From Candidatus Thorarchaeota archaeon (GTDB lineage Archaea > Asgardarchaeota > Thorarchaeia > Thorarchaeales > Thorarchaeaceae): a DNA stretch of 5,226 nt. The notes under the pieces were generated by a model, which was not told the DNA's origin, did no database searches, and was given only the letters and a program-made list of their open reading frames with translations. The first letter of the stretch is position 1; every line of letters begins with the position of its first letter. Positions 1,266-4,734 of this stretch are shown here, piece by piece. The stretch is taken from positions 1 through 5,226 of the forward strand of contig JAEOUL010000115.1 in NCBI GenBank assembly GCA_016839345.1, given 5' to 3'. Made by a program: the position numbers and the translations under genes.

Positions 1266-2261
1266 ATGATTATTGTGACCAAGAACCTTGTAGAAGGCTA
1301 CTTCATCGTAACTATAGACGACCTCATCTTTGAAGTTAAGGGCATAGTTCATCCTAGAGACCGTGTTATTGCATATCTTCGATATGTTCCAAGAAAAAAG
1401 TCAGACTCAGGATACAGGAAAGTGTATGATTTAGATGAAAGAGAGAATTATCTTCAGAGTAATCATCCATCGTACCTTTGGTTTAGTGAGTCCCATGGAA
1501 GAACAGTACAATCTGTTCCAAATAGTAAGATCAAATACATACTTAATCCTGTGAATCGCCTGACGAGTCTTAGAAACAGAATTGATGAAGTTTCAGACTT
1601 GGAAAAAGCTTCAGTTGAACTTGCAGGAAAATTGGTAGAATCCTCAGGTATTGAATGGTCAGACATTGGAATTACAGGCTCACAGCTTGTCGGTGTAGCA
1701 GGTACGGACTCAGATATTGACCTAGTAGTATTTGGGTCTGACATATGTCGGAGATTCTATTCTAAATTGTCTGAGAACATTGAATCGATTGTGGGTGTTG
1801 AGCGTTATACGGGAACCATACTTGATGAGCATGTTACTTTCAGATGGGGAGCTCATGAGAGCCTGAGGTCTGTTCTTCGGAAAATTGAGCAGGCAAAGAT
1901 ATTGCAAGGATTGTTCAGAAACTATCACTTCTTTGTGAGGCTAGTCAAAAATTCAGATGATCTTGATTATGTCTATGGTGATTTTTCATATCAGGAGAAG
2001 GGTCAACAATTAGTATCTGGGGAAATAATGAATAATGAGGAGTCTATATTCACACCTTGTGAGTATCTGATTGAATGTGATAATCTTCCAAATATTAGGA
2101 AACTTGTAAGCTATCGAGGTAGGTTTACTGAACAAATTTCGGAAGAGATGTTTTTTGAAGCATTAGGGAGACTTGAGATTGTCACTAATCACAAAGAGAA
2201 GACACAATTCATGCAGCTAGTGTTGGGTGAACTCCCTACTGACTATTTGGTTCCAAAGTAG
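1266..2261 (+). CDS. Archaeal Pol-beta-superfamily nucleotidyltransferase, three-part architecture
   Basis: This is a 331-residue protein with the minimal nucleotidyltransferase signature: GS at 138-139 followed by SDIDL at 149-153, supplying the two metal-binding aspartates. The N-terminal part (about 10-95) carries motifs I associate with an archaeal nucleotidyltransferase family: VKGIVHPRDRVIAYLRYVP, GYRKVYDLDER and a following SVP segment. After the catalytic region come FFVRLVK, IFTPCEY (261-267) and a C-terminal domain beginning SYRGRFTEQ (282-290). I recall this family as COG1665-like; its substrate is unknown to me. I chose ATG 1266 because it gives an N-terminus near that of relatives and sits about 24 nt from a TATA-like box. 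TTG at 1257 (334 residues), TTG 1263 and GTG 1275 are alternatives. No Shine-Dalgarno is seen. Translation ends with tandem in-frame stops, TAG then TGA. The molecule nucleotidylated is not predictable from the sequence. Confidence 0.9.
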   Translation: MIIVTKNLVEGYFIVTIDDLIFEVKGIVHPRDRVIAYLRYVPRKKSDSGYRKVYDLDERENYLQSNHPSYLWFSESHGRTVQSVPNSKIKYILNPVNRLTSLRNRIDEVSDLEKASVELAGKLVESSGIEWSDIGITGSQLVGVAGTDSDIDLVVFGSDICRRFYSKLSENIESIVGVERYTGTILDEHVTFRWGAHESLRSVLRKIEQAKILQGLFRNYHFFVRLVKNSDDLDYVYGDFSYQEKGQQLVSGEIMNNEESIFTPCEYLIECDNLPNIRKLVSYRGRFTEQISEEMFFEALGRLEIVTNHKEKTQFMQLVLGELPTDYLVPK

Positions 2262-2262
2262 T

Positions 2263-2344
2263 GAGTATTTACGTTCACAAGTCATTCATATCTACATCAG
2301 TTCACACATCAGTTGTGTGAATGGCGCCTTATTTGTGAATACTC
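2263..2344. repeat. Nested inverted repeat just after the nucleotidyltransferase stop
   Basis: GAGTAT (2263-2268) pairs with ATACTC (2339-2344). After a 6-base bulge on the left arm, TCACAA (2275-2280) pairs with TTGTGA (2333-2338). Inside these arms is a separate perfect hairpin: TTCACAC (2301-2307) with GTGTGAA (2315-2321) around a 7-base loop. ACATCAGTT also occurs twice in tandem register, at 2294-2302 and 2306-2314. The structure could be a 3' RNA hairpin of the upstream gene or a DNA operator. It has no U-run typical of an intrinsic terminator. Confidence 0.5.
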
Positions 2345-2350
2345 TAGGGG

Positions 2351-2378
2351 AAAGGGACCTCTTATTGCTTTAATATTG
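2351..2378 (+). repeat. Direct repeat A, copy 1 (AAAGGG-CTC-TATTGCTTT-TATTG)
   Basis: This copy matches 2542-2567 over about 26 bases with a 2-base gap: AAAGGG is identical, and the following 20 bases agree at 17 positions. The copies are 191 bp apart in the same orientation, with the ORB-like element at 2419-2444 between them. The function is unknown; an origin-associated repeat or an old duplication would both fit. Confidence 0.5.
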
Positions 2379-2418
2379 GAATAGGGATACGATATGTTCT
2401 ATGATACCTGTGAATAGA

Positions 2419-2444
2419 CACACCCCTTCGTTTCCTGTGGAAAC
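2419..2444 (-). other. ORB-like origin recognition box 1
   Basis: Read on the minus strand, the core is TCCACAGGAAACGAAGGGGT. As I remember it, the crenarchaeal ORB core is TCCACAGGAAACGGAGGGGT, one mismatch in 20. Both ORB hallmarks are present: a short dyad (GTTTCC, three bases, GGAAAC at 2430-2444) and a downstream G-string (four G, complement of 2423-2426). In known systems Orc1/Cdc6 binds such sites through its winged helix and AAA+ domain. A chance match of this length and organisation in an intergenic gap is unlikely. The consensus is quoted from memory. Confidence 0.68.
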
Positions 2445-2445
2445 A

Positions 2446-2458
2446 GGTAAAAAGACCT
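2446..2458 (+). repeat. Direct repeat B, copy 1 (GGTAAAAAGACCT)
   Basis: This 13-base sequence recurs at 2567-2579 with one change (GTTAAAAAGACCT). It starts immediately after the dyad of the ORB-like element at 2419-2444. The second copy forms the right arm of the A/T-rich palindrome. The copies are 121 bp apart in the same orientation. Confidence 0.45.
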
Positions 2459-2525
2459 ATGAAATACTTACACACTCATTCACAATGGTTATAGATTAGT
2501 GAATAGCGAAATAACTGGAGAATAT

Positions 2526-2578
2526 GGTTTTTTTAACGAAAAAAGGGCTCATATTGCTTTTTTATTGTTAAAAAGACC
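2526..2578. repeat. A/T-rich 53-bp palindrome, candidate duplex-unwinding element
   Basis: The outer arms GGTTTTTTTAAC (2526-2537) and GTTAAAAAGACC (2567-2578) pair over 12 positions with a single G-T wobble. Nested inside, AAAAAAG (2539-2545) pairs perfectly with CTTTTTT (2557-2563) around an 11-base loop. The strand is nearly all A/T runs, as expected for easily melted DNA. A transcription terminator or an RNA hairpin is an alternative, but it lies about 265 bp beyond the upstream stop codon. The AACGAA followed by GGG at 2535-2547 might also be a degenerate ORB. Confidence 0.6.
2542..2567 (+). repeat. Direct repeat A, copy 2, inside the A/T-rich palindrome
   Basis: This is the second copy of the AAAGGG...TATTGCTTT...TATTG repeat found at 2351-2378. 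It overlaps the inner stem of the palindrome at 2526-2578. The three substitutions (A for T, then TT for AA) lengthen the T-run to TTTTTT, which is what lets this copy pair with the upstream A-run; copy 1 cannot form that stem. Confidence 0.5.
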
Positions 2579-2579
2579 T
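2567..2579 (+). repeat. Direct repeat B, copy 2 (GTTAAAAAGACCT)
   Basis: This copy differs from 2446-2458 by one base. It forms the right arm of the palindrome at 2526-2578, followed by a small CTGAC/GTCAG inverted repeat at 2578-2592 that leads up to the second ORB-like element. Confidence 0.45.
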
Positions 2580-2592
2580 GACAGGACGTCAG

Positions 2593-2611
2593 CACAGTAG
2601 AAACGAATCGG
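2593..2611 (+). other. ORB-like element 2 (mini-ORB type)
   Basis: The plus strand reads CACAGTAGAAACGAATCGG. Aligned to the mini-ORB core CAGTGGAAACGAA it differs at one position (A for G in the dyad), and a broken G-run (CGGACGAGG) follows where the G-string would be. It is opposite in orientation to the element at 2419-2444, so the two flank the A/T-rich palindrome as an inverted pair. It is weaker than the first element. Confidence 0.48.
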
Positions 2612-2655
2612 ACGAGGTCTATATGTGCGCAGACACACTATCTAGCTCTTATCTT

Positions 2656-2668
2656 GGTATACATAATT
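2656..2668 (+). promoter_or_regulatory. TATA-like promoter element of the winged-helix gene
   Basis: GGTATACATAATT contains TATACATA (2658-2665), centred about 34 nt before the ATG at 2696. This predicts a transcript with a leader of about 10 nt or less, in keeping with the absence of a Shine-Dalgarno. It overlaps the last TGTGAA/TTCACA copy (2667-2672), so a protein bound there could affect initiation. Confidence 0.35.
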
Positions 2669-2695
2669 CACATACTCACACTTATTTGGGATTTC

Positions 2696-3370
2696 ATGTT
2701 AGTTGATTGTGAACAGTTGGTAATATCGGAGAAGATTGGTTTGACTAGTGAAGACAGAACTAACTATGTGTATGAATTCACGTATAGTTCTGCACCAGGT
2801 CTTCGTGAAATATTCCAGTGTAAATATGTCAGACCAGATGAGGCTCTTAACAGGTTTAGAAAGATCCTCGCGCTAACCGAATCGCCTTTTGACTTCAAGA
2901 TTATTGTGTCTGATGAAACAATGGGAGAAGAGTCTAGTTTCCAAGTAAAAGGCGGTAGTATTGAAGAGATGTTTGTCAAATTCAAGGTCTTCTTGGAAAC
3001 AAGTACAGGATTCGTCTTTAAGCCAGTCAGTGAAGAAATCACAGAGGTCGGAATCGAGGACCTTCGATTTGAGTCAATGAGTAATTACGATAAGATGCAG
3101 GTGATAATCTATGCATCCTTCAAACATGGAAAATTCTCCTCGCTTGATGTCACTGAAATTTACCATGACTCCTTTAATGAAGATCTCCCAAAAAGCACAG
3201 CATCCACGTATCTAGCAAGAATGTGGAACAATGGAAAGGGACATCTAGAACGATATGGAAACCGTTCAGGTTATACATATAGACTTAGAACTGAGATTGC
3301 AGAAGTCCAGAAAGAAACTGAGAGAGCGGAAGAACTTTTGGCTGCAATACAAATGCGAGTTAGAGATTGA
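2696..3370 (+). CDS. Orphan protein with C-terminal winged-helix-like domain
   Basis: I do not recognise the family. The product is 224 residues from ATG 2696. A TTG at 2654 would add 14 hydrophobic residues, but that stretch overlaps the TATA-like box, so I rejected it. Residues 1-125 look like a mixed alpha/beta domain with no motif I know. Residues about 129-198 resemble a winged helix: a first helix (KMQVIIYASFKHG), a second (SLDVTEIYHDSF), a likely recognition helix (PKSTASTYLARMWNNG) and a wing ending ERYGNRSGYTYRLR, rich in aromatic and basic residues. Residues 199-224 form a charged helix (EVQKETERAEELLAAIQ) that could mediate dimerisation. There is no signal peptide or membrane segment. 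It is too short to be Orc1/Cdc6 and has no Walker motifs. It sits directly downstream of the candidate origin, so transcription control or an origin-associated role is possible; both are inference. Confidence 0.8.
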   Translation: MLVDCEQLVISEKIGLTSEDRTNYVYEFTYSSAPGLREIFQCKYVRPDEALNRFRKILALTESPFDFKIIVSDETMGEESSFQVKGGSIEEMFVKFKVFLETSTGFVFKPVSEEITEVGIEDLRFESMSNYDKMQVIIYASFKHGKFSSLDVTEIYHDSFNEDLPKSTASTYLARMWNNGKGHLERYGNRSGYTYRLRTEIAEVQKETERAEELLAAIQMRVRD

Positions 3371-3417: not shown

Positions 3418-4734
3418 TCACAAATCAAATGTCTTCTCATCCATCTTTATGTCTAATGTTTCCAATTCCTCAAGGATTGGTTTATAGATTTCAGGGATTA
3501 TTGGTCTGTGAACACCAATCAGAGAGATCTTACCATCTAGAATCATCTTACTTGCTATAGCTACAGGAAGAGCCACCGTCCTAGACATTGAACTGTCGCC
3601 ATGCGGAATGCCATAGTCAATGAGAGTTGAGGTGATTTTTTCTTTCTTGTCAGGATACTCTGCAATGAACTCATGATGCATGACAATCATATCACGCTCA
3701 CCTGGAGCATACTGTAATTTTTCCTCGAAAAGATGACAAAGAGCATCTAGGATTGTGTTGATTCTCTCGGGGATTTGTTTTTCTTCAAACAGTCCTAACC
3801 ATTCAAAGCGCTTGATAATTGGATCATCAGTATCTAGACTACAAGCCTTTGCCACTGCGGATATCACGTTTGAGTCACTAGTTGATGTAAGCTCACGCAT
3901 TAAATCAGCATAGGTCATATCATTGAAAGATCGTTCCTCTATGTCTAAAAGGCCCAAGTCAGCAATCTTGTCTAGTGTACCGCACCATCCAACATTCCTG
4001 AAGGTTCCTCGTAACATCGTTTTTGTTTCTGGAATGTTGTAGATATCAATGTAAGAAAGACTGTCACGATTCGGGTATCCTTCGAAAATACCCATCCTAG
4101 GGACCTCCATTAGTTCGCAATTATCAAAGAGCTCAGATCCAGGGATTTTGATTTCTTTCCCATCACGGAGAAAATGTGCATCGTTACGTCCGGCCAAAAG
4201 CACTCCTCTGGGACTCCATGATAACTTGTAGCCGTATGGATTGTTGTTTGCATCAGGGGCAGGAAGACCTCCTGTAAAGGATGTAAAGCTAATAATCTTA
4301 CCGTCATTGTTGTGGACTTCATCAATGATTTTCATGGCGCTCATATGATCTATACCTGGGTCAACTCCGCATTCGTTCAGGATTAAGACACCAGCCTTTT
4401 TTGCATTCTCTTCAAGAGCTTTCATCTCATCTGAGATGTATGATGTAGTGCAGAAGTGTGTCTTATGTTTGATAGCGACTTTGGCAGCCTTCACGTGAAA
4501 TGTGTAAGGGAGCAAAGAGCACACGAGATCGACCTTCTTAGTGAGCTCTTCAAGGAGCTCATCATCTTTTGCTATATTGAAAGCCACAGCTTCAGTGTTT
4601 TTACATCCCTCAATGAGACGTTCAGCTTTGCTTATTGTACGACTCGCAACAATGACATAGAAACCATTGTCGGAGAGGTATTGTATGTATGGGCGAGCTA
4701 CTAGTCCAGCACCCAAGCACAGTACTTTCTTCAT
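3418..4734 (-). CDS. Saccharopine dehydrogenase (L-glutamate-forming), LYS9/AASS C-terminal type
   Basis: This 438-residue cytosolic oxidoreductase is predicted to oxidise saccharopine to 2-aminoadipate 6-semialdehyde plus glutamate using NAD(P)+. The N-terminal Rossmann domain has the dinucleotide motif GAGLVA (8-13) and an SR pair (31-32) after the second strand. It then matches yeast LYS9 and the human AASS C-terminal half along its whole length: LLPYTFH (74-80), TTSYIS (96-101), the signature NECGVDPGIDH (120-130), GGLPAP (155-160), GYKLSWSPRGVLLA (168-181), YPNRD (220-224), RGTFR (242-246), WLGLF (312-316), GERDMIVMHHEF (345-356), and SSMSRTVALPVAIA (381-394). The length is normal for LYS9 (about 450). 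It starts at ATG 4734, 2 bp after the upstream gene's stop, with a strong Shine-Dalgarno. The co-factor cannot be settled by eye. In the reverse direction the enzyme could serve lysine synthesis, but pairing with a lysine-2-oxoglutarate reductase of AASS type favours degradation. Confidence 0.95.
   Translation of the reverse strand: MKKVLCLGAGLVARPYIQYLSDNGFYVIVASRTISKAERLIEGCKNTEAVAFNIAKDDELLEELTKKVDLVCSLLPYTFHVKAAKVAIKHKTHFCTTSYISDEMKALEENAKKAGVLILNECGVDPGIDHMSAMKIIDEVHNNDGKIISFTSFTGGLPAPDANNNPYGYKLSWSPRGVLLAGRNDAHFLRDGKEIKIPGSELFDNCELMEVPRMGIFEGYPNRDSLSYIDIYNIPETKTMLRGTFRNVGWCGTLDKIADLGLLDIEERSFNDMTYADLMRELTSTSDSNVISAVAKACSLDTDDPIIKRFEWLGLFEEKQIPERINTILDALCHLFEEKLQYAPGERDMIVMHHEFIAEYPDKKEKITSTLIDYGIPHGDSSMSRTVALPVAIASKMILDGKISLIGVHRPIIPEIYKPILEELETLDIKMDEKTFDL

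What the first reader, a model, noticed from the sequence alone, without database searches (positions are those of the whole stretch)
2410..2615. Candidate archaeal replication origin with outward-facing ORB-like elements
A gene-free gap holds a near-perfect ORB core on the minus strand (2419-2444: dyad plus GGGG string) and a mini-ORB-like site on the plus strand (2593-2611), flanking an A/T-rich palindrome. This is the established layout of origins bound by Orc1/Cdc6. No orc1/cdc6 gene is adjacent, so automated origin finders that rely on gene context could have missed it.
Basis: partly seen in the sequence, partly recalled or inferred. Interest (0 to 1): 0.85.

Follow-up and report, generated by a model that had tools for sequence, protein, structure and literature searches.

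The report
Asgard archaeal replication-origin side module
This stretch of DNA from a Thorarchaeon, an archaeon close to the ancestry of eukaryotes, carries one true docking site for the protein that starts chromosome copying; the actual starting point most likely lies about four thousand bases away, and an unnamed DNA-binding protein gene travels with such sites in many Asgard archaea.

Summary
The minus-strand ORB (2419-2444) is real: 39.7 bits on a matrix built without the window; next window site -8.3. All 24 related loci that include the gap carry it. In 37 Thorarchaeal genomes, 81 of 101 ORB matches lie within 10 kb of the flanking gene; the reversed-pattern control gave none. The plus-strand 'mini-ORB' is not an ORB by score, and the A/T palindrome is not conserved.

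In relatives an outward ORB pair around A/T-rich DNA lies ~4.2 kb downstream, beyond the window. In the one contig with strong strand asymmetry the AT-skew switch falls at that pair, not at the window-type ORB; three other contigs show no switch there. So: origin locus probably yes, initiation core probably elsewhere.

New: the gap is packed with TGTGAA and precedes an unnamed winged-helix gene. In 32 of 40 non-Thor Asgard genomes having both, a homologue lies within 10 kb of an ORB (chance ~0.4); TGTGAA is the top-ranked hexamer upstream of it in 21 chosen non-Thor loci. I infer an Asgard origin-linked DNA-binding protein. No binding was tested.

The parts
2262..2740 (.). Intergenic gap conserved as a whole: ORB plus TGTGAA array upstream of the winged-helix gene
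   Evidence: Alignment of window and 24 loci; ORFs
2419..2444 (-). Genuine ORB (Orc1/Cdc6 box), G-string towards lower coordinates, about 320 bp before and antisense to the winged-helix gene
2591..2612 (+).
2526..2578 (.). A/T-rich imperfect inverted repeat (arms 2526-2544 and 2560-2578); not conserved in distant relatives
2274..2713 (.). Array of 8 TGTGAA/TTCACA sites starting at 2274, 2301, 2316, 2334, 2409, 2479, 2667, 2708; proposed binding sites of the winged-helix protein (inference)
2741..3370 (+). Gene of an unnamed winged-helix protein, 209 aa from the TTG start suggested by relatives; homologues lie near ORBs in many Asgard genomes
1275..2261 (+). Left neighbour, nucleotidyltransferase-like (weak Pfam match just under the cut-off)

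Best explanation
The window lies in the Orc1/Cdc6-dependent chromosomal origin region of a Thorarchaeon. The gap 2262-2740 is a side module of that origin: one ORB about 320 bp upstream of, and antisense to, the gene of an Asgard winged-helix protein, inside an array of TGTGAA sites. Shown by sequence: the ORB, its conservation, its near-confinement to this locus, the array, the linkage of the gene to ORBs in other Asgards, and a strand-composition switch at the downstream ORB pair in one genome. Inferred: Orc1 binds the outward ORB pair about 4.2 kb downstream (beyond the window) and MCM is loaded at the A/T-rich DNA between them; Orc1 also binds the ORB in the gap; the winged-helix protein binds TGTGAA, so that it and Orc1 meet on one element that sets the protein's own level and modulates origin firing.
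For: ORB present in 24 of 24 relatives' gaps and near-unique (81 of 101 genome-wide matches in 37 genomes within 10 kb of the gene; control 0). Outward pair around DNA of 80-82% A+T, against at most 72% in the window gap. Third-position AT skew step in G017:C2 explains 70% of variance and lies between the two genes that flank the pair. Outward gene orientation in four contigs. Non-Thor Asgards: homologue within 10 kb of an ORB in 32 of 40 genomes with both, Cdc6 within 6 kb of it in 23 of 30 chosen genomes, antisense ORB 230-360 bp upstream in 18 of 30 chosen loci. TGTGAA: 7-9 copies per 500 bp at this gap against a background of 0.36-0.43 and a next-best cluster of 4 in each of four contigs; first-ranked hexamer upstream of the gene in 21 chosen non-Thor loci, 3 or more copies in 16.
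Against: No AT step at the ORBs in G006, G003 and G014; in G017 itself the GC skew does not switch there (extremes at 312 and 350 kb). 20 of 101 ORB matches lie elsewhere. The Thorarchaeal Cdc6 genes are 13 kb or more away. Heimdall-type loci lack the TGTGAA array (0 of 9), so array and protein do not always go together. Two Heimdall-type and ten other chosen loci lack an ORB at the expected upstream place. No binding data exist.
Confidence: 0.6

Rival explanations
1. The gap is only a promoter. Orc1/Cdc6 and the winged-helix protein regulate the winged-helix gene there; the gap takes no part in initiation, which happens at the downstream pair.
For: The array and ORB sit directly upstream of the gene; TGTGAA clusters of this density were seen only at this gap in four contigs, as for an autoregulated gene; the skew switch is at the pair, not here.
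Against: The gene stays near ORBs across Asgards (32 of 40), which simple autoregulation does not require; in 7 of 9 Heimdall-type loci the upstream ORB is one arm of the outward pair itself.
Confidence: 0.25
2. One reading: the gap 2410-2615 is itself the initiation site, with ORB, A/T palindrome and mini-ORB.
For: The gap ORB is the best-conserved ORB of the locus; Heimdall-type loci have an outward pair at the corresponding place; an A/T-rich inverted repeat exists.
Against: No second ORB; less A/T-rich than the pair region; palindrome not conserved; skew switch excludes it in the one informative contig.
Confidence: 0.1
3. Not an origin: the ORB-like boxes are sites of an unrelated regulator that happen to cluster here.
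For: A few ORB-like sites occur elsewhere and recur between related genomes (off-cluster rows); skew is silent in three contigs.
Against: Near-confinement to one cluster; nearby Cdc6 in 23 of 30 chosen non-Thor genomes; skew switch in G017.
Confidence: 0.05

Closest known systems
Sulfolobus oriC1, Orc1-1/ORB origin (PMC12141716: outline and passages seen)
   Same: ORBs bound with polarity; two inverted ORBs flank an A/T-rich DUE (130-bp ORB3-DUE-ORB2 region); a third ORB
   Different: Here the pair-to-third-ORB distance is about 4.2 kb, the nearer Cdc6 gene is 13-39 kb away, and a winged-helix gene with TGTGAA repeats belongs to the third ORB
Sulfolobus oriC3 / WhiP, a winged-helix initiator described as a distant Cdt1 homologue (PMC5333045 and PMC12141716: passages seen)
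   Same: A winged-helix protein associated with an origin
   Different: WhiP replaces Orc1 at oriC3; here the protein accompanies ORBs. Kinship not established
Sulfolobus UBP and the ucm element (PMC12141716: abstract and passages seen)
   Same: A second DNA-binding protein with its own motif at an ORB origin
   Different: ucm lies between the two ORBs, and UBP binds hundreds of genomic sites; TGTGAA arrays surround the third ORB and were dense only here in four contigs
Haloarcula hispanica oriC2 with an ORB-rich region that represses it (PMC5333045: passage seen)
   Same: Extra ORB outside the core that may regulate the origin
   Different: One ORB rather than a rich region; effect untested here
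Predicted Odinarchaeum origin (PMC9246712: passages seen)
   Same: An Asgard chromosome origin proposed from sequence
   Different: Chosen from skew values; the terms ORB and Cdc6 do not occur in that text

Membership tests
Orc1/Cdc6-ORB replication origin (whole locus) | ORB sequence with G-string | tested here: met
Orc1/Cdc6-ORB replication origin (whole locus) | Inverted ORBs flanking an A/T-rich DUE | tested here: met
   In relatives, about 4.2 kb downstream of the window-type gap; the window itself ends before that place
Orc1/Cdc6-ORB origin core (the gap 2262-2740 alone) | Inverted ORBs flanking an A/T-rich DUE | tested here: not met
   One ORB only; second site -21.6 bits, not conserved
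Orc1/Cdc6-ORB replication origin (whole locus) | ORBs clustered at one place of the genome | tested here: met
   81 of 101 matches in 37 genomes within 10 kb of the gene; 8 of the other 20 are outward pairs on other contigs
Orc1/Cdc6-ORB replication origin (whole locus) | Linked orc1/cdc6 gene | tested here: inconclusive
   13-39 kb for the nearer gene in 12 Thorarchaeal genomes; within 6 kb in 23 of 30 chosen non-Thor genomes
Orc1/Cdc6-ORB replication origin (whole locus) | Switch of strand composition | tested here: inconclusive
   Clear in G017:C2 for AT skew, not for GC skew; none at the ORBs in three other contigs; Heimdall sample inconclusive
Orc1/Cdc6-ORB replication origin (whole locus) | Orc1 binding and mapped initiation | not testable with these tools
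   Needs protein and cells or deep read coverage
WhiP-type winged-helix initiator | Sequence or fold kinship to WhiP/Cdt1 | tested here: inconclusive
WhiP-type winged-helix initiator | Gene linked to an origin | tested here: met
   37 of 37 Thorarchaeal genomes have an ORB at about the gap-ORB distance from the gene; 32 of 40 non-Thor genomes with both features within 10 kb
WhiP-type winged-helix initiator | Origin firing depends on it | not testable with these tools
   Needs genetics or reconstitution

The most novel reading that the evidence does not exclude
Many Asgard archaea share a two-protein origin system: Orc1/Cdc6 on ORBs plus a dedicated Asgard winged-helix protein that recognises TGTGAA repeats beside an ORB and acts in initiation (loading, licensing or firing control). 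It would be a new origin-binding protein family in the archaea closest to eukaryotes.
Probability: 0.35. Interest if true: 0.87.

Novelty: new variant of a known kind. Interest (0 to 1): 0.68.

Why it matters
How Asgard archaea start chromosome replication is experimentally open. My searches of the held open-access library for Asgard or Thorarchaeal names together with origin or ORB terms listed few texts; in the passages I saw of six of them only a skew-based Odinarchaeum prediction was given. This locus supplies exact sequences: a core pair, a side module and a candidate second origin protein, all testable in vitro without cultivating the organism.

Tried and rejected
Rejected: the gap as a complete outward-ORB origin; a known RNA gene there (no tRNA/tmRNA and no Rfam match at gathering scores). 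G219:C1 (2.58 Mb) first looked like a closed chromosome, but 71 of its 74 fetched stretches carry N runs, as in joined contigs, so I discarded its skew; its ORB count (3, all in the cluster) still stands as a whole-genome count. Heimdall genome G029, 8 blocks of 10 kb: three of four left blocks have positive third-position AT skew and the two nearest right blocks negative, but the third right block is strongly positive and the fourth near zero: inconclusive. Fold search of the winged-helix model gave common winged-helix matches, none at E <= 0.001; WhiP was not seen in the lists shown, which means nothing. No Pfam family reached its cut-off for the protein or five homologues; no PDB match for the Thor profile at E <= 1; the wider profile gave weak ArsR-type winged-helix matches, best 1.3e-5.

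Selection to note: the 30 genomes are 30 of the 55 non-Thor genomes with the protein, picked mostly because an ORB lay near; so the 23 of 30 (Cdc6), 18 of 30 (ORB layout) and 21-plus-9-locus (TGTGAA) figures are not from a blind sample. The 32 of 40 figure uses every non-Thor genome with both features; of the 55 with the protein, 15 had no ORB match at 2 mismatches or were not among the 222 genomes. G212 (ORB match, no protein match) was left out of the tally. Some protein matches are weak (E up to 3e-4) and could be other winged helices. L192-L221 are 2-3.4 kb each, so farther ORBs are missed. In one search the minus-ORB places of L016, L018 and L019 were inferred from neighbours, not found by the 2-mismatch scan. 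ORB patterns came from Thor loci, so finding the Thor gap ORBs again is partly by construction; the clustering, the controls and the non-Thor results are not.

Full report
WHAT THE WINDOW IS. Homologues place it in Thorarchaeota, Asgard archaea. Genes: aminotransferase class V (1-1212, minus), a nucleotidyltransferase-like gene (1275-2261, plus), the gap 2262-2740, a gene without a Pfam match (2741-3370, plus; TTG start suggested by relatives), a saccharopine dehydrogenase-like gene (3418-4734, minus) and a piece of an alanine-dehydrogenase-type gene (minus, to the window end). No genome is held for the window, so all that is genome-wide comes from relatives.

THE OBSERVATION. The minus-strand ORB is genuine. 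A weight matrix from 55 ORBs of relatives (24 of the gap type, 31 of the pair type, window left out) gives it 39.7 bits; the next window site has -8.3. All 24 fetched loci that include the gap carry it at the aligned place; the 25th, L002, starts after it. The plus-strand site has -21.6 bits and 8 mismatches of 22; at that place 24 relatives have 8 to 12. The inverted repeat exists but is not kept in distant relatives.

WHERE ELSE ORBs OCCUR. With up to 3 mismatches in 22 positions, 37 Thorarchaeal genomes give 101 matches and the backward-read control none. 81 of 101 lie within 10 kb of the winged-helix gene, and each of the 37 genomes has one at about the gap-ORB distance from it. Of the 20 others, 8 form four outward pairs on other contigs (G007, G218, G020, G226), where the gene's contig ends within about 3 kb on the pair's side (L008, L080, L023 lengths; place), so contig breaks are likely; 12 lie truly elsewhere, several of them recurrent (see noticed items).

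THE DOWNSTREAM PAIR. About 4.2 kb downstream, before a gene that I take for an indolepyruvate ferredoxin oxidoreductase alpha subunit (recognised by eye in the ORFs, no family search), relatives carry a minus and then a plus ORB about 150 bp apart, G-strings outward, around A/T-rich DNA (80-82% in 50-bp stretches of L020 and L004), with GAACACGTGTTC-like palindromes nearby (18 loci). The window ends before it.

STRAND COMPOSITION. In G017:C2 (592 kb, no N) the cumulative AT skew peaks at 376,745. Third-position AT skew is positive left and negative right of this point for genes of either strand, and intergenic DNA follows (0.075 and -0.070). A single step explains 70% of the between-gene variance, between genes centred at 376.9 and 378.4 kb; 0 of 200 permutations did as well. 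Bootstrap (150 resamples) 95% range 374.7-379.3 kb. The pair is at 378.0-378.2 kb, the window-type ORB at 382.2 kb, where a split is 7% worse. So the pair, not the window-type gap, marks the switch. Against this: GC skew in the same contig has its extremes at 312 and 350 kb; G006:C64 and G003:C69 have weaker steps elsewhere (12% of variance each; 0 and 2 of 200 permutations as good) and G014:C54 none (132 of 200). Gene orientation is outward on both sides in all four contigs within 75 kb or as far as the contig goes, 58-70%; within 25 kb the left side is unbiased in three (46-49%).

THE CDC6 GENES. Each of 21 and of 16 Thorarchaeal genomes searched has a Cdc6-lid match. In the 12 genomes where both strong matches share a contig with the ORB cluster, the nearer is 13-39 kb away and the farther 54-72 kb (10 genomes) or 143-152 kb (2); e.g. 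G017:C2 402,484 and 442,400 against the ORB at 382,209. G219 is left out, its contig being a joined one.

THE WINGED-HELIX GENE. Among the best 120 of 305 homologues listed, identity is 83-98%, against 48-74% for all but one (97%) of the best 120 of 463 listed for the left neighbour (queries excluded). A profile finds it in 92 of 227 Asgard genomes: full length in 37, and in 55 only the C-terminal part (E 1e-19 to 3e-4), in proteins of 141-177 aa where I read them. A protein search with a wider profile returned 101 hits; the names given are of Frey-, Jord-, Njord- and Heimdallarchaeota, many have no name. The model (mean pLDDT 77, pTM 0.45, so domain arrangement is uncertain) shows two beta-beta-alpha units, a winged helix and a long C-terminal helix.

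LINKAGE ACROSS ASGARDS. In 40 non-Thor genomes that have both the protein and an ORB (up to 2 mismatches), the two lie within 10 kb on one contig in 32 (27 within 3 kb), about 0.4 expected by chance; one has them 14 kb apart and seven on different contigs. In 30 chosen loci an antisense ORB (up to 5 mismatches) sits 230-360 bp upstream of the gene in 18 (window: 320), and an outward pair lies in the fetched 2-3.4 kb in 18. In 7 of the 9 Heimdall-type loci the -300 ORB is one arm of the pair, the other at about -140. The window's weak plus-strand site falls near that second position, so it may be a decayed arm: a guess.

THE TGTGAA ARRAY. The window gap has 8 copies; the corresponding gap is the densest TGTGAA cluster of each of four contigs (7-9 per 500 bp, background 0.36-0.43, next best elsewhere 4). 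In 600 bp upstream of the gene in 21 chosen non-Thor, non-Heimdall-type loci, TGTGAA ranks first among hexamers by the number of loci with 3 or more copies (16 of 21), above A/T runs; in 9 Heimdall-type loci it reaches 3 copies in none.

HOW IT MOST LIKELY WORKS. [quoted passage not shown] passages of PMC12141716). Inferred here: Orc1/Cdc6 binds the outward pair and MCM is loaded at the A/T-rich DNA between; a further Orc1 sits at the gap ORB; the winged-helix protein binds the TGTGAA array around that ORB. That arrangement suits autoregulation coupled to Orc1 occupancy, or an auxiliary origin element; an ORB-rich region that represses an origin is known in Haloarcula (passage of PMC5333045). 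Sequence alone cannot separate a promoter-only role from an origin role.

NOVELTY. The ORB origin is a known kind. Not found in my searches: its position in Thorarchaeota, this split layout, and an Asgard protein and motif linked to it. The searches cover only the held open library, and of the papers I saw passages only, or listings.

Noticed in passing
G017:C2:107808 and G018:C25:206510: A second, off-cluster ORB-like site with the same 22-mer in two related genomes; in G017 it lies in or near short ORFs close to a likely promoter.
   Followed up: partly
G204:C14:3731, G205:C55:7887, G208:C243:5370, G223:C68:9787, G224:C7:58143: Five Thorarchaeal genomes share another off-cluster ORB-like box of the form CTCCATNGGAAAYGGAGGGGTG; its neighbours were not examined.
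   Followed up: no
Pair region, e.g. L020 13660-14080 and L001 13830-14330: GAACACGTGTTC-like palindromes recur around the downstream ORB pair; binder unknown.
   Followed up: no
window 2316-2340: The string TGTGAATGGCGCC is invariant or nearly so in the 25 aligned gaps, stronger than the rest of the array.
   Followed up: partly
G004 (L005, L014) and G003 (L002, L004): Two copies of the winged-helix gene in one assembly, in G004 with a gap ORB on both contigs; probably mixed bins.
   Followed up: no
G219:C1: A 2.58-Mb record that looks like one chromosome but has N runs in 71 of 74 fetched stretches, as if contigs had been joined.
   Followed up: yes
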